Source: Sialis fuliginosa
Lineage: Eukaryota > Arthropoda > Insecta > Megaloptera > Sialidae
DNA length: 64,000 nucleotides
NCBI GenBank assembly: GCA_961205875.1
Contig: OY540821.1
Span: 17,781,782 to 17,845,781 of the forward strand
Reading direction: 5' to 3'
A program made the translations under genes and the position numbers. How positions within the stretch are numbered: the stretch's first letter is position 1; every line of letters starts with the position of its first letter. Positions 43,324 through 59,689 of this stretch are shown here, piece by piece. Under the pieces are notes generated by a model. It saw only the letters and a list, made by a program, of their open reading frames with translations, had not been told where the DNA came from and did not search any database.

Positions 43324-44140
43324 TTTTGAATTTTAAATATGTATTATATTGAAATGAAAGTACATTTAAATTTCGCGCCTCGAATATTAGAGATTTTTGA
43401 GATAGCAAGTAGATGGCAGCACAAGTGGCTTGTCAAAATATTTTAACCAAGAGTTGAACCCCCGTGGTTCATACAATATATACTAGATGGCGCCAAGAGT
43501 AATAAATATAACCAATAAACGTTCTATTAAATTTCTATCGAATAAATTTGAAACGAGGATTAATTGATATTTGTAGTGCTCGTGTTTAAAAATCTATTGT
43601 TTGTGATTAAATGTATTTTATGTTGAAAATGCTTCGTTTTGTGAATATTTACGATAGTTAAAATCTAGAAACACGTGCCAAAATTTTAACCTACAATTTA
43701 CGTTTGTAATTTTTATGTGTTTGAAAATACATAATGCGATCTTCATGTGAATTAACTCGTGTATCAAATTGTAAAATGCATTAAGTAAATTGTTTTAAAT
43801 CTGCAATCGTTATAATAAATTGTTTTGTTTTCAGGATTATGAGAATGACAAGCTTCACATGAATGCAATATACCCACACAGCACCCAATATTGCTACAAT
43901 ATTTCTGAACCATTACAATATTACAGGTGTTTTGCAATATTTTAAAATGATTGCAGTAATATTGCAAAGTATTAATTACTTTTAAAATATTTCATAATGA
44001 TTGCAGAAATATTATATAGTTATGTTGCACAGAAAATGTTGTAGACAGATTGTTGCATTATTAAAATGCAACAATAACATTAACGCGGAATTTATTGTAC
44101 TAATTTATATAGTTAATACAATTATTATTTTAGGTAAATA

Positions 44141-44477
44141 CGGAGACTCTGGGGGTCCTCTGTCAAAAACTCTAAAAGTCACGTGTTGATGTGTTAGAAT
44201 AGAGTAGAGTATGTTGTATCTATGTTAATATATTATTTAGTGCAATTAATAAACCTAACCTAACCCTACCTGAAAGGGAACCAAATCTACCTGGACTACT
44301 CTAACTTAAACTAAATAATTAAATATAACACAGCTAAACGTGGCCAGTCGTTTTATAAAATGCGTGATTTATAAAAGTTGTTAACACTGATCTAGTCACG
44401 CATGCGCGTCAACCCTATTCTGAATAACTATATACGTGATTTTTCACAAATCTGACAGAGGACCCCCAGAGTCTCCG
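44141..44477. mobile_element. 337-bp MITE with TA target site, nested in the CACTA-like element
   Basis: Ends CGGAGACTCTGGGGGTCCTC and its complement, about 27 bp inverted, flanked on both sides by TA. A TA duplication suggests the Tc1/mariner group. No coding capacity. It sits between the transposon's left end and the transposase. Confidence 0.85.
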
Positions 44478-45223
44478 TATTAGCCTTATTTTATTCTACT
44501 TATTATTATTATAAGAGGGTATCTATACATTAAAAAATATTATGGATTCATAAATGGTACGTCAACACCGTCAACACCATCTCCAGCATATTACATAAAC
44601 GTCAGTGTTTGGAACAGTTCTACTGCGCATGCGCCTATAGCAGTATTTTGATTGGCTGAAATCATGTAAGTGCGGTTGTTAAGAATTATGCCGTAGTCAT
44701 ATAATTGCATATAATTAAGTATGTCGTACTGTCGTAGTAGTGCTAGTGTATGCAGTAATTAAGTGCGCATAACGAATATTTTGTGATTTCTGTATATTCT
44801 TTAAATTGTTCCATGGGTTCTATGATAGTGCGTTTGAAGATTTTGAATGAGCTACATTAATAATATATCAACAGTTCGTATTGTTCAAGAAAACAAGTTT
44901 ATTATATATATATATATATAAAGTAAGTAAAATTAGTTAATTATTCTGCATTTTTACGTTCTAAAATTTCTAATATCTATGACAGGTCAGACAGGTGTAT
45001 AATTCAAAAATAATCCTAACAATGCCTCTTTTGTTCACATTGTTTTATTAAAAAATTACGTTATAATTATAACCTCACTTTCGGTCACATGTTTTTAACA
45101 TTTTAGTTAATTACATATAATAATATGTTACTGATATTACTGTAATATTATCTCTCTGTTCTTTAGTTACCTACGAGCATATAAAAATTGTTTTAACCTA
45201 GTTTATTTTTTTAATAATTAATC

Positions 45224-47368
45224 ATGAGTGAAAAATTTAACAAATTAAAACGAAAATACTCAGGGAGACATATTCGGCGAATTATTCAAGCTGAAACGAA
45301 TTCAGAATTAGAAAAAATAGGTATATATAATCAACAACTAATAAGTCATCAGGAAAATGTTTCATTGAAAAATAGCGAGTCAATGAGCGATTCAAGTATT
45401 ATTTCTAATGATCATAATAAGCAGCTCTTCGACAATATTAATAATTATTTTGATAACAGCATTGAGACTAATTTACTAAGTGATTGTAATAGCATTTCAT
45501 CTTCTATAAGTAGTTATGAATCTGATGAGGAAATAAATATTAATATGCCTAGCTCTAGCTCCTCATCTTATATTAATGTTTCAAATGACTGCATGGTAAA
45601 TAATGAGGATAGGTGCAAAGAATTTAAGAATGCTATAGCATCATGGGCCATAGAATATAATGTTCCCCATAATACTTGCAATGGAATTTTGGCTATAATA
45701 AATGAATATACAGATTATAATATTCCAAGGGATACAAGAACTCTACTCAAAACTCCGAGAAAAACTAAAGTGCATCTAATAAAAGGTGGAAAATATTGTC
45801 ATTTCAATTTTAATGATATCATCGAAGAAATGTGTGTCAATACCAAAGATATAAGTACTATTAATCTTTTAATAAATATTGATGGACTTCCACTGTCAAA
45901 ATCATCTATAGCTTGTTTGTGGCCTATACTATGCTCGAATGATGTGTCAAGTAAGGTGTATATTGTTGGAGCATTTTATGGAAATGGAAAACCCGAAAAT
46001 TGCAATGAATTTCTTCAGTTATTAACTAAAGATTTAATTGATTTTATTAATAACGGATATTATACAAATGAAAAACATATCCAGATAAGACTTAAGGCTT
46101 TGATATGTGATGTACCGGCAAAGTCATTTGTTTTATCGACAAAAGCACACACAGGATATTACAGTTGTTCAAAATGTATAATTGAGGGAATTTATAAGGA
46201 TAATAGAATTTGTTTTCCGAAGACAGATGTAAACCATTGTTTGAGAACAGATGAGCTGTTTGCGACAAATTCATATGAAGATTATCAGTCAGGATATACT
46301 ATATTAAATACAATTCCACATTTTGGGCCAATTACAAATGTGCCACTAGATTACATGCATCTAGTGTGTTTAGGTGTTGTTAAAAAAATGATTTTACTTT
46401 GGTCAGCATCTAAACGTCCGTTAATTCGTCTCTCTGCAGAATCAATTAAAATGATTTCTAATTCTTTGGATCTATTGAATGATACGATGCCAACAGATTT
46501 TGCTAGAAGACCACGGGGTATCCATCATGTTAAGCACTGGAAGGCGACTGAATTTCGTACTTTACTTCTGTATACTGGTCCTTTAGTTTTAAAAGAAGTA
46601 TTGAAAAAAGATGTTTATCAAAACTTTTTAACACTACACGTTGCTGTCACGATTTTAGCAAGTCCAGTACTTTGCAAAATTAATTTTTATCTTGAATATG
46701 CTCAGAGCTTATTAGAACATTTTGTACTCTCTTTCCAAATATTATATGGTAAGCAACATGTTTCCCATAATGTACATAATTTGCTGCATCTCTGTGCAGA
46801 TGTAAGAAAATATGGATCTTTGGATCAATTTAGTGCATTTCGCTTTGAAAACTATTTGTTTTCTGTTAAAAAACTGATAAGAAAGAGTGAAAAGCCACTA
46901 GAACAATTGGCTAGAAGATATTCTGAAATTCATACAAGCTCATCAAAATCTCATAGATCAAATCAGTCGGAAAGTTTTGAACCGCACTTTAAAAATATTC
47001 ATTCAAATGGTCCATGTGCTGCTTTGCGTCATGTTCGATTTCAGTATAAAATTATGTCAAATAATTTATTCAGCATGAATTGTGATAATCAGCGAGACAA
47101 CACTTGTATTTTGAAAAATAAAGAGTGTGTAGATGTTAAAAATTTTGTTAAAGGACAGGATAATGTTATGTATATAGTTGGAAAACAATTGAAATTTGTT
47201 GATAGTCTTTACCTTTCTCCATGCGATTCTAAGGAATTTGACATTCAAATCGTATCTTCACATTCCGAGAGAATGAATTTTTGGCCTGTCACTGATATTA
47301 AATACAAAGCATGGAAAATGTGTTTTGAAAATAATTATATTATTTTCCCAGTTATTCATACGGTGTAA
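45224..47368 (+). CDS. TNP2/CACTA-like transposase, 714 residues
   Basis: A single uninterrupted frame. The N-terminal ~130 residues are Ser/Asn-rich and low-complexity. The core carries candidate acidic catalytic positions: D220 in 'LINIDGLPL', D376 in 'VPLDYMHLVCLG' and E542 in 'FRFENYLFSVKKL'. 'LDYMHL' with the downstream 'KHWKATEFR' is typical of TNP2-type CACTA transposases. A Cys pair in 'HTGYYSCSKC' (309-318) may bind zinc. Expected activity: cut-and-paste transposition of the element at 43873-51728. The start at 45224 follows AT-rich leader sequence and the stop is at 47366. The intact frame suggests a recent or still functional copy. The assignment to CACTA rests on motifs and element structure, not on a database search. 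Confidence 0.75.
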   Translation: MSEKFNKLKRKYSGRHIRRIIQAETNSELEKIGIYNQQLISHQENVSLKNSESMSDSSIISNDHNKQLFDNINNYFDNSIETNLLSDCNSISSSISSYESDEEININMPSSSSSSYINVSNDCMVNNEDRCKEFKNAIASWAIEYNVPHNTCNGILAIINEYTDYNIPRDTRTLLKTPRKTKVHLIKGGKYCHFNFNDIIEEMCVNTKDISTINLLINIDGLPLSKSSIACLWPILCSNDVSSKVYIVGAFYGNGKPENCNEFLQLLTKDLIDFINNGYYTNEKHIQIRLKALICDVPAKSFVLSTKAHTGYYSCSKCIIEGIYKDNRICFPKTDVNHCLRTDELFATNSYEDYQSGYTILNTIPHFGPITNVPLDYMHLVCLGVVKKMILLWSASKRPLIRLSAESIKMISNSLDLLNDTMPTDFARRPRGIHHVKHWKATEFRTLLLYTGPLVLKEVLKKDVYQNFLTLHVAVTILASPVLCKINFYLEYAQSLLEHFVLSFQILYGKQHVSHNVHNLLHLCADVRKYGSLDQFSAFRFENYLFSVKKLIRKSEKPLEQLARRYSEIHTSSSKSHRSNQSESFEPHFKNIHSNGPCAALRHVRFQYKIMSNNLFSMNCDNQRDNTCILKNKECVDVKNFVKGQDNVMYIVGKQLKFVDSLYLSPCDSKEFDIQIVSSHSERMNFWPVTDIKYKAWKMCFENNYIIFPVIHTV

Positions 47369-47558
47369 ATATATTTTATAAATACCATCATATCAATAGT
47401 TATTAAATTTTATATTGTGCCATTCTTTTTAAAAATTTAGTTATAATATATTCTCCGTAACTACTTAAAATATCTACAAATATATTTTTTTTAAAATGTA
47501 AAATCATTAAAATAATAAATTATGCTTTCATATTTATGTTATAATTTTGTAATTACAG

Positions 47559-49273
47559 ATGTCCAAATTCACCATAGTAGATTTCGAAGATGGTTTACAT
47601 TTAGTACCAACACTGTGGTTGTCTGATGATAAAACCTGTTGCTTGTGGCCAGATCATTATAAAACACAATATCGAGTAAATAACGCAGTTATACAAGAAA
47701 TTATGCCTGATGCCACAGATAATTGGCCATCACTAACCGTCAAGAAAATTTTAGGTACAGCAGGTATGACTAAAACACATCGTCCATATACTTTATATAT
47801 TTATATCTTGTTCATATATATATATTATACATGGCATTCAATTTATTATTTGTCAACTTAATAATATGATAGATAGCTATCATGTTGGAATGAGAAAACT
47901 AAAATTAGCCGAAGAAACATCAAATTTAGAAGATTTAACACAATCGGATAACGAAGAACAAATGAAGATGAGTAGAAAACGGAGACATAGTCGATCGAAA
48001 AAGAGGTACTCTTCATCAGAAGCAGAAGAATTGCTTGATAATATTGATACACTGATTGTCAGTAAGATACCACCAGTTCCAGTACTTTCGCAATATAAAA
48101 ATAAAAGAAACTATAGTGTCACAAAACCATTGATAATTGATGGTACGTATTAATTAAAAATGATTCAATGTAGATTAAAATAAAGTCATTTATAAAAATT
48201 ATAATACTACTGTTTGTTATATTTAAGAAAATGCATCTACTTCACGTGCCTCGCAGTCTATATCAACCTCACATTTTACAAGTGAAAATAGACAAACTAG
48301 AACAAACGATAGCTATAGTGTCACAAAACCATTGATAATTGATGGTACGTATATTAATTAAAAATAATTGAATGTAGATTAAAATAGTCATTTATAAAAA
48401 TTATAATATTACTGTTTGTTACATTTAAGAAAATGAATCTACATCACGAGTCTCACAGTCTATTTCAACTTCACATTTTACAAGTGAAAACAGACAAACT
48501 AGAAGAAATGATTTAGAGGAATTTCACTCAACGATTGGTTTGTATATATTATGTATTCTGACGTACATCATTTATAATATTTTGTATATTTAAATTTTGT
48601 AATATCTTGTTCCAGAGTATAGATATATCAAAACTAAACCAAGCAAACTACAAATTAAGAAACATTGAGGAAATACTTGGTAGAGTTGAGGAACTTTATC
48701 ATGTTAATAATAATAGCGGATTAGATTCGGATGAAGATGTCAATATTCCCATGAACGACGTAACAGGTTTATTGGAGTTCAATGATAAATTAAAAGAATC
48801 AAATTTCTTTGCAAAGATGGTAATAAAATAATTATTATATAACTAAAAATTAAAACATTCGATTTTGTTTGGTATTATTTAAACTAACATATAACATAAA
48901 TGTATTTCAGATAAAAATATTGAAAAGAATTGGAGGTAATGATGTCAGTGGAGTAATTAAAGGCATGCTCAAACACTTGTTAACAAATGAACTAGCAGAA
49001 AAATATAGTTGGGCTGGATTTAAAGGAAAATTACCCTTTAATAATTTAATACACGTTACTCGACTGGTGACAAGTAAGTAATTTATTGAATTTACAGAAA
49101 GGATTGTTTAGTAATTATTGCCATTAATTTTTATAGAGGTTGCTAGAGTACATATACCTCAAACAACAGATGGAGTTTTAAACGAGCACATCGGAAAATG
49201 GTTAGCTCAAGCAACACTTAGAAAGACGAGAATAACCGATAAGCAACTAAAAACGAAACAGTTATCTAAATAG
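47559..49273 (+). CDS. DUF4806-like accessory protein of the transposon, multi-exon
   Basis: Starts 190 bp after the transposase. Exons: 47559-47754 (MSKFTIVDFEDGLHLVP, 'CCLWPDHYKT'), 47873-48142 ('GMRKLKLAEETSNLE', Lys/Arg-rich 'RKRRHSRSKKRYSSSE'), 48228-48344, 48430-48537, 48616-48819, 48911-49073 ('SGVIKGMLKHLLTNELAEKY', 'WAGFKGKLPFNNLI') and 49137-49273 ending TAG. Exons 1-4 and 6-7 join in phase. The 48430-48537 to 48616 junction does not continue the 'SIDISKLNQANYKLR' frame, so a splice choice is unresolved or a frameshift is present. Exons 3 and 4 are a tandem duplication. The last two exons match my memory of the DUF4806 domain of insect and cnidarian proteins. Biochemical role unknown; a DNA-binding or regulatory partner of the transposase is a guess. 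Confidence 0.6.
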
Positions 49274-50598
49274 TTTCATTATTTATTTCTTTTAATTTAT
49301 CATGCACACATTTAAAATAAAAAACTAATTATTTGTTTAATTTTTTTTTAAATTTAACTTAGAGATTATTTAAAAAATTTATTATGCACTATTATAAAAG
49401 TAAACTGTTGTTTATATTATATTTATATTAGTTTCATTGTTTTATTTTATTTTTTAATTATCATGCACACATTTTAAAAACTAACTAATTATTAGTTTTG
49501 TTATTTGTTTCTTTAATTTTTTTTTGATTTATCGCATGCGCACATTAATTAATTTATTTATTTATTTATAAGCAGTTTGATACATCAAATAAATAATGTG
49601 TAACATTGTCACGTATAAGAAATTTACAAAATATTATAAAAGTAATTACATAAAATACATATTCAAATAGTCATGAACTGGAAAAATGAAATAAAAGCAG
49701 TTTTCTAGTAAAATATATTTAATGGACTTTAATGGAATTTTTTATAAGGTAGTGTTTTGATTTGCAAAGGAATGCAATTGTATGGTTTCAGAGATTGGTA
49801 CTCATGATTGAACTGAGTTTTACTCTTATGAAGAGATAAAACAATTTTGAAATTATTTTGTGATCTCTAAATTGTGCATGTGATATGATAAATTAATTAA
49901 AACAAAATACTAATTATTAGTTTCATTATTTGTTTGTTCAATTTTTTTTTAATTTAAGTTAATTATTTTTTTAAATTTATTATGCACTATTATAAAAGCA
50001 AACTTGTTTATATTATATTTATATTAGTTTCATTGTTTTATTTTATTTTTTAATTATCATGCTCACATTTAAAAAAACTAACTTATTATTAGTTTCGTTA
50101 TTTGTTTCTTTAATTTTTTTTTTGATTTATCGCATGCGCACATTAATTAAAACGTAATACTAATTATTAGTTTCATTATTTGTTTGTTCAATTTTTTTTT
50201 AATTTGTTATATGCACATTATAAAAATGCAAATAACTATTAAATAAATAAATTTTTGTTTATTTAAGTTGAATTAATTTTTTTTAATTTATCTAATGCAA
50301 TATATCATAAAAACAAAAAACTTAAATCAGCATTAAAATCAGTGCGCGAGCTGTATTCATGTGAGGCATGTTTGGATTTTGTCGTGTCTTCCGAGGTAAC
50401 AATTTTCTACCATTATTATTGACTATATATATATATGTCTGATCTTAACTTAAAAAACTAGAGCTAGCTGTAACTAGATTCGCATGAATATAGCTTGTTG
50501 ATTAAAATATACATAATATGTAATAAAATGTAATATAATGTAATTTTTTTGTACAATAAATATCATTTTTAAAAGTCAGTGTATCATTACAACTATAA
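49274..50598. repeat. 3' non-coding part of the transposon with about 600-bp direct repeats
   Basis: A block at about 49379-49553 ('tatgcactattataaaag', 'ttgttttattttatttttta', 'tttatcgcatgcgcacatta') recurs at 49977-50150. Further short copies of 'aatactaattattagtttca' lie at about 49908 and 50158. Otherwise AT-rich, with no ORF. Confidence 0.8.
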
Positions 50599-51485
50599 TC
50601 CTTAATATATATAAAGCTCAACGTCTCTCTGTCTGTCTGTCTGTCTGTCTGTCTGTCCGTTAGTTACCTTATCACTCGAGAACCACTTATCCGATTTACG
50701 AGTTTTTTTTTTAATTCATAGGTACGTTCTCTGGCCAGGTTATAGGCTATATTTTTTTACGTTAGGTAACATAACAACAAAGCAGTGACGATAATAGTAA
50801 ATCAAGTCGGAAAAAATTTTGCCGTCGGCGCGCTGTTTTGTAATACGCTGCCTAAACCGTTCAATATAGAACAAAATAATGTATTAAAGAATTGTGTAGA
50901 ATCAAAAGTTCTACAATTAAGTCAGCGACACGATATGTCTAACTTTTATATTTAAGCCACAATGACTGCTTTTATGTTACAAAGAAAACATAAAATATTT
51001 GGGTTTTGTTTACATGGACTTATGACCTGCAAAACATTAATCCTTATCGAAATAAATGATTTCATCGTCATAAGTACTTAATGTAGATATAGTTTGCCAT
51101 TTACAGCATCCAATTTGGTCGTATAGTTTAGAAAATATCTTAAAATATATTTATAAAGATAATATCTTAAATGTATGGTGTCGTGCCGCATCGAAGCGAG
51201 TACATCAGACTGGATTCGCGTACGCTCGGTAGATATTCGGAGTCCCTCGGCTGATCGTTTGTGTTTATTTTGTTTTCAATAATTAACATTTAAATTTAAA
51301 CAGAACACAAATTATTTGTACTTTTTTCTTCTGATTCGTTTTTGTTAGGTAATTTAGGTATTGATAAATTATTATTACAATAATAACTAATCGTGTTTGT
51401 ACTTAATTAATTAAACTATATTTTTCAAAAATCCTAAACAATAATTCCGTAGTCTACGCGAGGGAAGCCGCGTGGGTCCAGCTAG
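50599..51485 (+). mobile_element. Non-autonomous Helitron, copy 2, nested in the CACTA-like element
   Basis: A|TC at 50598/50599 and CTAG|T at 51485/51486, with 3' hairpin 'acgcgagggaagccgcgtgg'. Highly similar throughout to 15666-16566, differing in (CTGT)n length and scattered bases. It landed in the right subterminal region of the transposon. Confidence 0.85.
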
Positions 51486-51728
51486 TATCCTATATGTATA
51501 CATATTATAAAATAAGTAATATTGCAGAAATATCCATTAGTCATAATTATGCAATATATCATTAGCATGTCTCTGCAATATTGCAAAAATATGCTCAGGG
51601 GCGGACATTAGACCATTGATACAATATTTCAATAACATTGCAGCAACATTGGCAATCAAATTTCAATATTTAGAATCTCACAAAGTTATATTTTTGCAAT
51701 GTTTCAGAAATATTGGGTGCTGTGTGGG

Positions 51729-52165
51729 ATGTCTTTCAAAAGGACGTGATTATTATACTATTTTATGACAATCATCAAAAAGGAATGTCACAGATTTTAA
51801 TGAAATTTAAATATATTGCTTATATTACTCTACAGTAAATAATGTTTCAAAATATTCATATATATCGAGGGTTCGATTTAGAAAAAAGATTATTGCAAAT
51901 ATATACATTTAAAAATATCGATCTTGTCTATAAATTAATAACGAATTCAAAATTGCAGCAGTTTGCATTTCTATCCAATCCAATATATCTAAATCAATAA
52001 ATTTTGTCATCGTATAGTTCGGAAAAAAATTCTATGAACTAAAAGAACTAGAAGAACGAACTAGTTCATTAAAGATTACTGAACTATAGGGAGCGCTCTC
52101 TGTCATGAACTAAAATGCCCAACTCTAATTATAATTTACGCCAGTCACAGAACGTCATATATTCA
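51729..52165. other. Spacer between transposon and minisatellite
   Basis: The right flank of the transposon (51729-51770) matches 53335-53375. A 'gaactagttc'-containing piece near 52050-52110 has an inverted counterpart near 53095-53190, hinting at another decayed element around the minisatellite. No gene. Confidence 0.45.
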
Positions 52166-52480
52166 TCAGAACCATGTAGAGAAAACCTTATACCAGGCAC
52201 ACATCTTATATTCATCAGAACCTGTAGAGAAAACCTTATACCAGGCACATATCATATATTCATCAGAACCTGTAGAGAAAACCTTATACCAGGCACACAT
52301 CATATATTCATCAGAACCATGTAGAGAAAACCTTATACCAGGCACATATCATATATTCAACAGAACCTGTAGAGAAAACCTTATACCAGGCACACATCAT
52401 TAATTCATCAGAACCATGTAGAGAAAACCTTATACCAGGCACATATCATATATTCATCAGAACCTGTAGAGAAAACAGCC
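52166..52480. repeat. 48-49-bp minisatellite, about 6.5 copies
   Basis: The unit is marked by 'gtagagaaaaccttatacc' at 52175, 52223, 52272, 52321, 52369 and onward. It creates a short repeating frame (CRENLIPGTHHIFIRT) with no gene context. Confidence 0.9.
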
Positions 52481-53390: not shown

Positions 53391-54346
53391 TATATGCGGT
53401 CGAAGCCGCGGGCACGCACGCCCGTGTACGTACTGGCTAACACATATGCATGTACGGGCGTTATGACGTGCACGCCTTGACGGCGGCAGTGCGTGCATGG
53501 TCGGTCAGAGGCACGTCTGTCGTGCCCGGTAACACCCTCGGAAAGCACAAAACATACAACACCGAAAGACATATAAGAATTTACGTGCATATGCAGTATG
53601 TACATCGATGTTTGCTGTTTTGTATAGTCGACACATATATATATCAAAAATAAAGTATCAAACTAACAACATAAATCAACCTAACATTATTTGTGCAGAC
53701 AACATAAAATATTTATACGCGGTCGAAGCCGCGGTCTAATCAGAGGTAAAAAACGCGTAATCGAAGCCGCGGTCTAATCCGCTGTCAAAACCGCGCAATC
53801 GAAACCGCGGACGAAGCCGCGGACGAAGCCGCGGTCGAAGCCGCGGACACGCACGCCCGTGTACGTACTGGCTAACACAAATGCATGTACGGGCGTTGTG
53901 ACGTGCACGCCTTGACGGCGGCAGTGCTTGCATGGTCGGTCAGAGGTACTGTCTGTCGAAACCTCCGGTAACACCCTCAGAAAACACAAAGATATGACAA
54001 TAAATAACTTATATAGTAGTAAGTATAAATGAAAAAAACTAACAAAATTTAAAATAAAACAACATAATACACATTTGTTCAGATAACATAAATAATTTAT
54101 ACGCGGTCGAAGCCGCGGGCACGCACGCCCGTGTACGTACTGGCTAACACAAATGCATGTACGGGCGTTGTGACGTGCACGCCATGACGGCGGCAGTGCG
54201 TGCATGGTCGGTCAGAGACACGTCCGTCGCGCCCGGTAACACCCTCGGAAAGCACAAAACATTCAACACCGAAAGACATAAGAATTTACGTGCATATGCA
54301 GTATGTACATCGATGTTTGCTGTTTTGTATAGTCGACACATATATA

Positions 54347-56813
54347 CACTGCTTGTCACAATTAGTGGGACACTTTTTCAATGTTACTCAGTTTTGGTAA
54401 AAATTATCATATTAATATGAAAATTCATAAAAATCATTAGTGTGGTGTTGTTTCAAAGCCCAAAGAGTAAAAACTTTGTGCGTACAACTCTCGGAGGGGT
54501 GAAAAATGGAAAGGAACAATTTCAAGTATTGAAAAAAAAGTTTAAAAACTGTTTATTCCAAGATAATGATAAAATTCACATTAATTATTATACGTAGAAT
54601 TTATTTGAACCCTAAAGGTATAAATTATTTTTTTTAATCAATATTTAATTCTATTTACCACCTGTTATCATCCCCTAAATTTAGGTTATTAGAAATATAG
54701 GAAAACATGGAATAAATTTTAAAAATCTTCAAGGGTTGATAGAAATAATCACAATAAATATAAATTTACAATTTCAATAAAATCCAGTAATTTTTAACCA
54801 CTTTTCTACCCTTTAATATTCAACCCCCTGTGTATTACAATTAATTTGAACAACGTAGGTAAAGATAAATTTTTGAAACTTACAAAATAGGTAGTAAACT
54901 GTATATAAAACGGTATGGTATGTTAAAAAACACAAATAAATTATAAGGGTAGGCATCAACCTTTAAATACTAAACCGCCCCAAATAGTAGAGTAGAATAT
55001 TAAATTTAAGTGTGATTTTATAAGAAATCAATTAATGCTCTTATTAAAAGATTTTTGTGAAAATTTTGTGCACCACAATTCACCCCTACGGATGTAGCTA
55101 CCCTAAATTTAAAAAATATACACTTTTTTTAAAACATCGTATCTAAAAATTCAGTGGAATTTTTTTGTCATCCTTTCGTAATATAAAAGGCCGACATTTG
55201 ATCTTTCCACACCGGTAAAATTAAAACAATACACTATCAGGAACTACCCTTAAATTCTTATTTCTTAAAAATAAAATAAATTTTATTTCAATTAATATTG
55301 AAAATATAGGTATCTATGGAAATTAATGGACAATTTACGAGTTTTTCGTAAGTTTGGCTCAAATTAATTCAATCGTTTTGAGACGTTGAAATTTACTAAA
55401 TGTGTAGTGAACTGTGTATACAACAGAATTGTATGTTAAAAAACACAAATAAGTTATAAGGGTAGTCGTCAACCCTTAAAAACTAAATCACCCCAGATAA
55501 TAGGGTTGTAAATTGAATTCAATTGCGATTTTATGAAATATCAACTAAAGCTGTTATTTAACATTTTTTTTGAAAATTTTGTGCACCACAATTCATCCCT
55601 ACGGATATAGGTACCCTCAATTAAAAAAAATATACACATTTTTTTAAATATGGTATCTAGACAGTCTGTGGTATTTTTGTTTCAATCTTCCGTAATATAA
55701 AAGGCCGACATTTGTTCTTTCGTTATCGGTAAAATTAAAACAATCCATTATCAGAAACGTCTCAAAATGATTGAATTAATTTGAGCCAAACTTACGAAAA
55801 ACTCGTAAATTGTCCATTAATTTCCATAGATACCTATATTTTCAATATTAATTGAAATAAAATTTATTTTATTTTTAAGAAATAAGAATTTAAGGGTAGT
55901 TCCTGATAGTGTATTGTTTTAATTTTACCGGTGTGGAAAGATCAAATGTCGGCCTTTTATATTACGAAAGGATGACAAAAAAATTCCACTGAATTTTTAG
56001 ATACGATGTTTTAAAAAAAGTGTATATTTTTTAAATTTAGGGTAGCTACATCCGTAGGGGTGAATTGTGGTGCACAAAATTTTCACAAAAATCTTTTAAT
56101 AAGAGCATTAATTGATTTCTTATAAAATCACACTTAAATTTAATATTCTACCCTACTATTTGAAGCGGTTTAGTATTTAAGGGTTGATGCCTACCCTTAT
56201 AATTTATTTGTGTTTTTTAACATACCATACCGTTTTATATACAGTTTACTACCTATTTTGTAAGTTTCAAAAATTTATCTTTACCTACGTTGTTCAAATT
56301 AATTGTAATACACAGGGGGTTGAATATTAAAGGGTAGAAAAGTGGTTAAAAATTACTGGATTTTATTGAAATTGTAAATTTATATTTATTGTGATTATTT
56401 CTATCAACCCTTGAAGATTTTTAAAATTTATTCCATGTTTTCCTATATTTCTAATAACCTAAATTTAGGGGATGATAACAGGTGGTAAATAGAATTAAAT
56501 ATTGATTAAAAAAAATAATTTATACCTTTAGGGTTCAAATAAATTCTACGTATAATAATTAATGTGAATTTTATCATTATCTTGGAATAAACAGTTTTTA
56601 AACTTTTTTTTCAATACTTGAAATTGTTCCTTTCCATTTTTCACCCCTCCGAGAGTTGTACACCCACTATCGATGCACGCACAAAGTTTTTACTCTTTGG
56701 GCTTTGAAACAACACCACACTAATGATTTTTATGAATTTTCATATTAATATGATAATTTTTACCAAAACTGAGTAACATTGAAAAAGTGTCCCACTAATT
56801 GTGACAAGCAGTG
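54347..56813. mobile_element. 2.47-kb fold-back element with Tc1-like ends, inserted in the array
   Basis: Inverted ends CACTGCTTGTCACAATTAG, flanked by TA on both sides (54345-54346; 56814-56815). Removing it restores the usual satellite sequence 'cacatatatatatcaaaa'. The arms (about 54347-55384 and 55757-56813) are almost identical reverse complements over more than 1 kb. The 372-bp centre is a diverged direct copy of an arm segment (about 54875-55250). No coding capacity, so it is non-autonomous. Terminal sequence and TA target suggest the Tc1/mariner group. Confidence 0.9.
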
Positions 56814-59689
56814 TATATCAAAAAAAAGTATCAAACTAACAAAATAAATCAACCTAACATTATTAGTGCAGACAACATAAAATATTTATACGCGGTCGAA
56901 GCCGCGGTCTAATCAGAGGTAAAAAACGCGTAATCGAAGCCGCGGTCTAATCCGCTGTCAAAACCGCGCAATCGAAACCGCGGTCAAAGCCGCGGACGAA
57001 GCCGCGGGCACGCACGTCCGTGTACGTACTGGCTATCACAAATGCATGTACGGGCGTTATGACGTGCACGCCTTGACGGCGGCAGTGCGTGCATGGTCGG
57101 TCAGAGACACGTCCGTCGCGCCCGGTAACACCCTCGGAAAGCACAAAACATACAATACCGAAAGACATATAAGAATTTACGTGCATATGCAGTATGTACA
57201 TCGATGTTTGCTGTTTTGTATAGTCGACACATATATATATCAAAAAAAAGTATCAAACGAACAAAATAAATCAACCTAACATTATTTGTGCAGACAACAT
57301 AAAATATTTATACGCGGTCGAAGCCGCGGTCTAATCAGAGGTAAAAAACACGTAGTCGAAGCCGCGGTCGAAGCCGCGGTCTAATCCGCTGTCAAAACCG
57401 CGCAATCGAAACCGCGGTCGAAGCCGCGGACGAAGCCGCGGGCACGCACGGCCGTGTACGTACTGGCTATCACATATGCATGTACGGGCGTTATGACGTG
57501 CACGCCTTGACGGCGGCAGTGCTTGCATGGTCGGTCAGAGGTACTGTCTGTCGTAACCTCCGGTAACACCCTCAGAAAACACAAAGATATGACAATCAAT
57601 AACTTATATAGTAGTAGGTATAAATGAAAAAAACTAACAAAATTTAAAATAAAACAACATAATACACATTTGTTCAGACAACATAAATAATTTATACGCG
57701 GTCGAAGCCGCGGGCACGCACGCCTGTGTACGTACTGGCTAACACATATGCATGTACGGGCGTTGTGACGTGCACGCCATGACGGCGGCAGTGCGTGCAT
57801 GGTCGGTCAGAGGCACGTCTGACGTGCCCGGTAACACCCTCGGAAAGCACAAAACATACAACACCGAAAGACATAAGAATTTACGTGCATATGCAGTATG
57901 TACATCGATGTTTGCTGTTTTGTATAGTCGACACATATATATATCAAAAAAAAAGTATCAAACTAACAAAATAAATCAACCTAACATTATTTGTGCAGAC
58001 AACATAAAATTTTTATACGCGGTCGAAGCCGCGGTCTAATCAGAAGTAAAAAACGCGTAATCGAAGCCGCGGTCGAAGCCGCGGTCTAATCCGCTGTCAA
58101 AACCGCTCAATCGAAACCGCGGTCGAAGCCGCGTACGAAGCCGCGGGCACTCACGCCCGTGTACGTACTGGCTATCACATATGCATGTACCGGCGTTATG
58201 ACGTGCACGCCTTGACGGCGGCAGTGCGTGCATGGTCGGTCAGAGACACGTCCGTCGCGCCCGGTAACACCCTCGGAAAGCACAAAACATACAACACCGA
58301 AAGACATAAGAATTTACGTGCATATGCAGTATGTACATCGATGTTTGCTGTTTTGTATTGTCGACACATATATATATCAAAAAAAAGTATCAAACTAACA
58401 AAATAAATCAACCTAACATTATTTGTGCAGACAACATAAAATATTTATACGCGGTCGAAGCCGCGGTCTTATCAGAGATTAAAAACGCGTAATCGAAGCC
58501 GCGGTCGAAGCCGCGGTCTAATCCGCTGTCTAAACCGCGCAATCGAAACCGCGGTCGAAGCCGCGGACGAAGCCGCGGGCACGCACGCCTGTGTACGTAC
58601 TGGCTAACACAAATGCATGTACGGGCGTTGTGACGTGCACGCCTTGACGGCGGCAGTGCGTGCATGGTCGGTCAGAGGCACGTCTGACGTGCCCGGTAAC
58701 ACCCTCGGAAAGCACAAAACATACAACACCGAAAGACATAAGAATTTACGTGCATATGCAGTATGTACATCGATGTTTGCTGTTTTGTATAGTCGACACA
58801 TATATATAAAAAAAAAGTATCAAACTAACAAAATAAATCAACCTAACATTATTTGTGCAGACAACATAAAATATTTATACGCGGTCGAAGCCGCGGTCTT
58901 ATCAGAGATTAAAAACGCGTAATCGAAGCCGCGGTCGAAGCCGCGGTCTAATCCGCTGTCAAAACCGCTCAATCGAAACCGCGGTCGAAGCCGCGTACGA
59001 AGCCGCGGGCACTCACGCCCGTGTACGTACTGGCTATCACATATGCATGTACCGGCGTTATGACGTGCACGCCTTGACGGCGGCAGTGCGTGCATGGTCG
59101 GTCAGAGGCACGTCTGACGTGCCCGGTAACACCCTCGGAAAGCACAAAACATACAACACCGAAAGACATAAGAATTTACGTGCATATGCAGTATGTACAT
59201 CGATGTTTGCTGTTTTGTATAGTCGACACATATATATAAAAAAAAAGTATCAAACTAACAAAATAAATCAACCTAACATTATTTGTGCAGACAACATAAA
59301 ATATTTATACGCGGTCGAAGCCGCGGTCTAATCAGAGGTAAAAAACGCATAATCGAAGCCGCGGTCGAAGCCGCGGTCTAATCCGCTGTCAAAACCGCGC
59401 AATCGAAACCGCGGTCGAAGCCGCGGACGAAGCCGCGGGCACGCACGGCCGTGTACGTACTGGCTATCACATATGCATGTACGGGCGTTATGACGTGCAC
59501 GCCTTGACGGCGGCAGTGCTTGCATGGTCGGTCAGAGGTACTGTCTGTCGTAACCTCCGGGAGCACCCTCAGAAAACACAAAGATATGACAATAAATAAC
59601 TTATATAGTAGTAAGTATAAATGAAAAAAACTAACAAAATTTAAAATAAAACAACATAATACACATTTGTTCAGACAACATTAATAATT

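What the first reader, a model, noticed from the sequence alone, without database searches (positions are those of the whole stretch)
43873..51728. Apparently complete CACTA-like transposon carrying a second, DUF4806-like gene
Matching 20-bp inverted ends, motif-rich subterminal regions, a 714-codon open transposase frame with D220/D376/E542-type motifs and 'LDYMHL', plus a downstream multi-exon gene on the same strand. A transposase paired with a DUF4806-like partner suggests that this poorly understood domain family belongs, at least partly, to mobile elements.
Basis: partly seen in the sequence, partly recalled or inferred. Interest (0 to 1): 0.75.

Follow-up and report, generated by a model that had tools for sequence, protein, structure and literature searches.

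The report
Jumping DNA element with two genes
This is a DNA transposon that carries, besides its cutting enzyme, a second gene for a probable DNA-binding protein, which suggests that in this genome at least some genes of a poorly understood protein family belong to mobile DNA rather than to the host.

Summary
Positions 43873-51728 form a 7.86-kb DNA transposon with perfect 20-bp inverted ends, motif-rich subterminal regions (CAATATT 12 hits; 0.7 expected), an uninterrupted 714-aa transposase and a 7-exon, 398-aa gene whose C-terminus passes Pfam's DUF4806 cut-off (E 1.3e-7). Corrections: the conserved acids are D220/D296/E542, not D376; and no target-site duplication flanks this copy. It is best described as TRC-like, the animal branch of CACTA with CCC ends and 2-bp duplications: its end matches 19 of 27 bases of the published Tribolium TRC end. 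A sister family (ends CCCAGATAGCA) has 2-bp duplications in 4 of 4 copies. Pieces of the DUF4806 gene lie beside a related transposase, same strand and order, at 4 of 10 transposase loci of this 392-Mb genome, two of them by weak matches. Nothing convincing was found outside such loci, but the searches could miss diverged exons. A paper passage calls DUF4806 a BEN-type DNA-binding domain. I infer that gene 2 does the job of plant CACTA TnpA: binding the subterminal repeats to assemble the ends. The pairing was not found in the held literature; Repbase was not searchable. A new variant of a known kind.

The parts
43873..43892 (+). left terminal inverted repeat, CCCACACAGCACCCAATATT
   Evidence: perfect inverted match to the right end; first 27 bases 19 of 27 identical to the Tribolium TRC end
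43873..44133 (+). left subterminal region, 6 CAATATT hits (5 separate sites)
   Evidence: degenerate relative on C3, 74%
44133..44484 (.). foreign nested inverted-repeat (MITE-like) insert, perfect 29-bp arms at 44137 and 44481; approximate limits; not part of the element's own machinery
45224..47368 (+). transposase gene, one uninterrupted frame of 714 aa; D220, D296, C315-x2-C318, H518, E542 conserved
47559..47763 (+). gene 2 exon 1 (N-terminal part; a relative lies downstream of the C14:2.93 Mb transposase). An upstream exon is not excluded, since an AG stands just before the ATG
47873..48142 (+). gene 2 exon 2
48228..48344 (+). gene 2 exon 3 (tandem-duplicated with exon 4)
48430..48537 (+). 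gene 2 exon 4
48623..48819 (+). gene 2 exon 5 (start of the DUF4806 match)
48911..49073 (+). gene 2 exon 6 (DUF4806 core)
   Evidence: relics on C6
49137..49273 (+). gene 2 exon 7 with stop codon
51495..51728 (+). right subterminal region, 6 CAATATT hits (5 separate sites)
   Evidence: degenerate relative on C3, 78%
51709..51728 (-). right terminal inverted repeat

Best explanation
A two-gene cut-and-paste DNA transposon of the TRC-like (animal CACTA, CCC ends, 2-bp duplication) kind. Gene 1 encodes the DDE transposase, which cuts at the CCC ends. Gene 2 encodes a DUF4806 (BEN-type) protein that I infer binds the repeated CAATATT motifs in the two subterminal regions, brings the ends together and recruits the transposase, as TnpA does in plant Spm/En. 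Shown by sequence: ends, subterminal repeats, both genes, their recurrence together at other loci, 2-bp duplications in the sister family. Inferred: DNA binding by gene 2, its target, its need for transposition, and any activity of this copy.
For: Inverted ends and subterminal repeats. DUF4806 above Pfam's cut-off. Distant relatives (22% identity in the alignment, 26-31% by search) match Transposase_21. Same order and strand of the two genes at C6 relic A (transposase aa 129-211 at 89%, gene-2 aa 235-300 and 300-346 at 85 and 98%), inside C6 element B between CCCAGATAGCA ends with AC duplications, and at C14:2.93 Mb (exon 1: 0 of 400 shuffles as good; exon 2: 7 of 400). Sister family: 2-bp duplications AC, CT, CT, AA in 4 of 4 copies. 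Pattern CCCANANAGCANCCAAT, drawn from the two families after the fact, occurs 6 times in the genome, all at them, 0 in the reversed control. End 19 of 27 identical to Tribolium TRC, 0 of 20,000 shuffles as good (TRC definition in PMC1636069, passages and section 6). DUF4806 called a BEN subtype in a passage of PMC11075544 citing Pan et al. 2023. In maize Spm both TnpA and TnpD are needed and TnpA binds subterminal repeats (passages of PMC2613891 and PMC1636069).
Against: This copy has no target-site duplication. Its exact ends occur nowhere else, so the window family shows no recent spread. The window transposase has no Pfam TNP2 hit of its own. The C14 and C6-B gene-2 matches are weak one by one, were looked for in stretches chosen after the transposase was found, and none of the pieces matches Pfam; no DUF4806 exon was seen at C14 (354 of 400 shuffles as good). 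6 of 10 transposase loci show no DUF4806 piece by tblastn, a test that also missed C6-B. Word-count control over all 7-mers is passed only if A/T-only words are left out. No DNA-binding evidence; the structure model failed (pLDDT 33.6).
Confidence: 0.65

Rival explanations
1. Gene 2 is a captured host BEN/DUF4806 gene, a passenger that does not serve transposition.
For: Zebrafish and Anopheles have annotated DUF4806 genes (passages of PMC11075544 and PMC11445403). 6 of 10 related transposase loci have no visible DUF4806 piece.
Against: The same pairing, order and strand occur with transposases only about 40% identical, so it is older than one recent capture. No lone DUF4806 gene was found in this genome.
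Confidence: 0.15
2. Gene 2 mainly regulates or protects the element (promoter control, escape from silencing, nuclear import) rather than building the cutting complex. This can hold together with the best explanation.
For: TnpA also controls the Spm promoter (passage of PMC1636069); in PIF/Harbinger elements gene 2 is described as carrying the transposase to the nucleus (abstract of PMC9710019).
Against: Motif hits are at both ends, 6 and 6, not only near the presumed promoter.
Confidence: 0.25
3. The locus is a domesticated pair of genes kept by the host after the element stopped moving.
For: Exact ends found at this locus only, both frames open, a foreign insert in a non-coding part, no duplication at its flanks.
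Against: Perfect 20-bp ends and dense subterminal motifs remain, which a domesticated gene would not need. The comparison with relic A (dN 0.042, dS 0.082; dN 0.053, dS 0.128; non-coding 20 of 428 differing) is too small to show host selection.
Confidence: 0.1
4. The two genes are neighbours by chance, between fortuitous inverted repeats.
For: Missing target-site duplication; other perfect inverted repeats of 18 bp or more exist in the window.
Against: Recurrence of the pair and of homologous ends.
Confidence: 0.02

Closest known systems
TRC elements (SmTRC1 of Schistosoma; Tribolium and Aedes TRC), PMC1636069, passages and section 6 read
   Same: CCC ends, 2-bp duplication (in the sister family here), Transposase_21-related transposase; end 19 of 27 identical to the Tribolium one (the only published end compared)
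   Different: No DUF4806 gene is mentioned in the parts read; [quoted passage not shown]
Spongebob / EnSpm-4N1_HM (Hydra, insects), PMC4298943, passages read
   Same: CCC ends (CCCAGCCAAC...), 2-bp duplication, assigned to TRC there
   Different: Partial copies in insects, broken transposase in Hydra; no second gene described in the passages
Plant CACTA Spm/En, Tam1, Tgmt (PMC2613891, passages read)
   Same: Transposase plus a second DNA-binding protein; subterminal repeats
   Different: CACTA ends, 3-bp duplication reported for Tgmt, second proteins (TnpA, TNP1) that share little similarity even with each other; here DUF4806
PIF/Harbinger (PMC9710019, abstract and outline read)
   Same: Two-gene cut-and-paste element in insects
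   Different: Different transposase family and a MADF partner
RAG1 (residue positions recalled, from no call)
   Same: Order D, D, C-x2-C, paired H, E, with 19 residues from second D to first C and 20 from last H to E here, as recalled for RAG1
   Different: No sequence or structure match was tested; resemblance only

Membership tests
TRC-like (animal CACTA) | CCC at the start of the inverted ends | tested here: met
   19 of 27 to Tribolium TRC
TRC-like (animal CACTA) | 2-bp target-site duplication | tested here: not met
   window copy: TA left, AT right. Met in 4 of 4 copies of sister family B. PMC1636069 reports it in 7 of 14 SmTRC1 copies, so its absence in one copy is not decisive
TRC-like (animal CACTA) | Transposase_21 (PF02992) domain | tested here: inconclusive
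   no direct hit for the window protein nor for the C6-B and C14 pieces; three more distant in-genome relatives pass the cut-off and align through D220, D296, C315, C318, E542. Hence 'TRC-like', not a firm filing
Plant-type CACTA | CACTA end motif | tested here: not met
   ends begin CCCACACAG
CACTA in general | repeated motifs in subterminal regions | tested here: met
   with the reservation; a different motif set in family B (AGAAGTC 4 and 3 hits against 0.2 expected, where the commonest 7-mer, TCATAAA at 9, is within the shuffled range, maximum 11)
CACTA in general | second element-encoded DNA-binding protein | not testable with these tools
   a second gene is present; binding needs an experiment
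DUF4806 (PF16064) | score above Pfam's gathering cut-off | tested here: met
   32.2 bits against 25, E 1.3e-7
BEN domain | BEN fold | not tested
   taken from a passage of PMC11075544 citing Pan et al. 2023; gene 2 is spliced and was not folded

The most novel reading that the evidence does not exclude
DUF4806/BEN-type proteins are the TnpA counterpart in a branch of animal TRC elements, and many 'host' DUF4806 genes in animals (for example the 54-69 domains counted in two Hydra species) are transposon genes or genes tamed from them.
Probability: 0.4. Interest if true: 0.7.

Novelty: new variant of a known kind. Interest (0 to 1): 0.5.

Why it matters
The 2006 TRC paper proposed a TnpA-like role for a Schistosoma protein but found no relatives of it in other animal TRC elements (passages), so which protein plays that part elsewhere stayed open there. 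A BEN-type partner is a concrete, testable candidate. It also warns that DUF4806 expansions or enrichments in genome papers (Hydra, Trypodendron; passages) may be transposon copies.

Tried and rejected
Pfam family search of the genome for PF16064 found nothing, not even the window's own copy (the domain spans introns), and its 14 controls were silent too; it is no evidence of absence. NCBIfam: one sub-threshold hit, not used. Sub-threshold Pfam hits not used: Toxin_YhaV for gene 2 (E 0.047); DUF1258, Plavaka (E 0.00095) and others for the distant relatives. PDB sequences: nothing below E 0.55. Viral contigs: no relative of the transposase or of gene 2's C-terminal part. AlphaFold2 on the single transposase sequence: mean pLDDT 33.6, not used. 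Three genomic places with the end at 2 mismatches (C3, C5, C6) show no similarity beyond the 20-mer region and no partner end in the 3 kb held; not counted as copies, although the reversed control gave 0. The relic comparison of dN and dS was too small to use. Scan for ends around the three distant Transposase_21 loci and C14:2.93 Mb: no clear pair; at C10 a 13-bp ATTGCAAATATTT pair with TTT on both sides and an 11-bp CACTG pair without duplication, neither followed up.

The idea that D376 is the catalytic acid was rejected on conservation. Plant-type CACTA ends were rejected.

Full report
WHAT WAS CHECKED. The window lies at G000:C13:17781782-17845781 of a 392-Mb genome in 20 contigs; no name is given, and I did not identify the organism. 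The reported element was read directly. Its ends are a perfect 20-bp inverted repeat (43873-43892 and 51709-51728). Other perfect inverted repeats of 18 bp or more exist in the window, so the ends alone are not proof; the case rests on ends, motifs, genes and relatives together.

GENES. The transposase frame runs 45224-47368, 714 aa, no intron. Gene 2 was rebuilt by hand from splice sites: exons 47559-47763, 47873-48142, 48228-48344, 48430-48537, 48623-48819, 48911-49073, 49137-49273, six GT-AG introns, frame kept throughout, 398 aa. Exons 3 and 4 with their introns are a 202-bp tandem duplication, 91% matching. Pfam places DUF4806 at aa 272-352 (E 1.3e-7, 32.2 bits, cut-off 25). No transcript evidence was available, and an exon upstream of 47559 is not excluded.

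TRANSPOSASE KINSHIP. The window protein has only a sub-threshold DUF4218 match (E 0.12). The genome search returned 15 matching rows, which I group into 10 loci: window; C6 relic A; C6 element B; C14:2.93 Mb; C14:6.08-6.10 Mb (a cluster of four rows, counted once); C14:5.95 Mb; C11:638 kb; and three distant open frames at C11:624 kb, C10:1.74 Mb and C14:1.73 Mb. The last three match Transposase_21 (E 3.5e-10, 1.7e-12, 1.6e-9); the C6-B and C14:2.93 Mb pieces do not. In a six-row alignment D220, D296, C315 and C318 are invariant in the 5 rows that cover them, H518 and E542 in the 5 that cover them, H522 in 4 of 5, while position 376 is D in 2 and E in 4 of 6. D220/D296/E542 is therefore the better triad, by conservation only. 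From recall, the spacing of second D to C-x2-C and of the paired H to E resembles RAG1. The AlphaFold model was unusable.

ENDS. CAATATT gives 6 hits in the left 261 bp, 6 in the right 234 bp (10 separate sites in all) and 6 in the 7361 bp between; the shuffled mean for the two ends is 0.68. Over all 7-mers, shuffles averaged 4.5 for their commonest word and once or more reached 14; leaving out A/T-only words, 0 of 1000 reached 12. The ends with up to 2 mismatches occur at the window's two ends and at three single places elsewhere that I do not accept as copies. The subterminal sequences recur together, degenerate (74 and 78%), at C3:17682402-17683828, in a relative of about 1.45 kb in which I saw no transposase or gene-2 match and whose right tip is lost. 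A sister family, B, has ends CCCAGATAGCA; its four copies found (C6 3760 bp, C10 1497, C11 1141, C3 1464; main pieces 94.7-99.2% identical to the C6 copy) are flanked by 2-bp duplications AC, CT, CT and AA, 4 of 4. The pattern CCCANANAGCANCCAAT, which I drew from these two families, is found 6 times in the genome, one end of each B copy and both ends of the window element, 0 in the reversed control. The window end is 19 of 27 identical to the Tribolium TRC end, B's 16 of 27 to it. The window copy's own flanks (ATA, ATG) show no duplication.

CO-OCCURRENCE. DUF4806-gene pieces lie downstream of a transposase, same strand, at 4 of 10 loci. C6 relic A: transposase aa 129-211 at 89% and gene-2 aa 235-300 and 300-346 at 85 and 98%, with deletions, stop codons and foreign DNA. 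C6 element B: a transposase about 40% identical runs, after a deletion, into stretches matching exons 6 and 7, inside the CCC ends (1 and 2 of 400 shuffles as good); tblastn had missed these. C14:2.93 Mb: a 40-42% identical transposase followed by a match to exon 1 (0 of 400 as good) and exon 2 (7 of 400), with no DUF4806 exon seen (354 of 400). The other six loci showed none by tblastn in the fetched flanks; three are fragments and three distant. Searches for gene 2 elsewhere returned the loci above and two chance-level places, at E 9.46 and 3.49. Diverged or intron-split copies could be missed.

MECHANISM. Two element-encoded proteins, one a DDE transposase and one a putative DNA-binding protein, with motif arrays at both ends, are the layout of Spm/En, where TnpA binds subterminal repeats and both proteins are needed (passages of PMC2613891 and PMC1636069). 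DUF4806 is described as a BEN subtype, a DNA-binding domain (passage of PMC11075544). Family B has other subterminal motifs (AGAAGTC 4 and 3 hits, 0.2 expected), as plant CACTA families differ among themselves. I therefore infer that gene 2 reads CAATATT-type motifs; no binding was tested.

KNOWN OR NEW. TRC elements with CCC ends and 2-bp duplications are known (PMC1636069, PMC4298943). The link to DUF4806 was not found in the held library: DUF4806 or its accessions appear in 4 papers, none making the link in the passages read; BEN domain with CACTA and transposon gave one paper, where BEN stands in the reference list; a five-term search with BEN and EnSpm gave none; a looser one listed 20 of 1,407 papers. 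One search shows DUF4806 among domains expanded in Hydra (69 and 54, against 0-6 in five other species), in a table that also holds transposase domains, which fits. Most subscription papers and Repbase are outside these searches, so prior knowledge is quite possible.

VERDICT. A real, structurally complete two-gene TRC-like transposon; whether this copy is active is unknown. The pairing is solid in this genome at two loci of one family (window and relic A), good at C6 element B, suggestive at C14.

Noticed in passing
window 44133-44484: Nested MITE-like insert with perfect 29-bp inverted arms; 40 other genomic places matched its left part (a lower bound, 40 of 309 candidates scored).
   Followed up: partly
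window 54342-56818: Long, near-perfect inverted repeat with arms of about 1 kb (perfect stretches of 142, 480 and 383 bp).
   Followed up: no
window 52155-52476: 48-bp tandem repeat, 6.6 copies, about 430 bp outside the right end; the window ends about 62 kb from the end of contig C13.
   Followed up: no
window 50611-51490: Stretch with GTCT repeats at one side and a GCGAGGGAAGCCGCGTGGGTCCAGCTAGTA-like end at the other; looks like a Helitron-like or similar insert in the element's 3' part (by eye).
   Followed up: no
L047:7319-10000, L050:6039-8282, L052:5834-8311: Three long open Transposase_21 frames (933 aa across L047-L048, 748 and 826 aa) elsewhere in the genome, a distant clade with no DUF4806 partner seen by tblastn.
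   Followed up: partly
L011 and L013, at position 1501 or its complement: Two single-ended places share CCCACACAGCAnACAnTATTCAAG, longer than the searched 20-mer, perhaps ends of a third family.
   Followed up: no
L043 (C6:4.81 Mb): The family B element and relic A of the window family lie side by side in one 10-kb stretch.
   Followed up: partly
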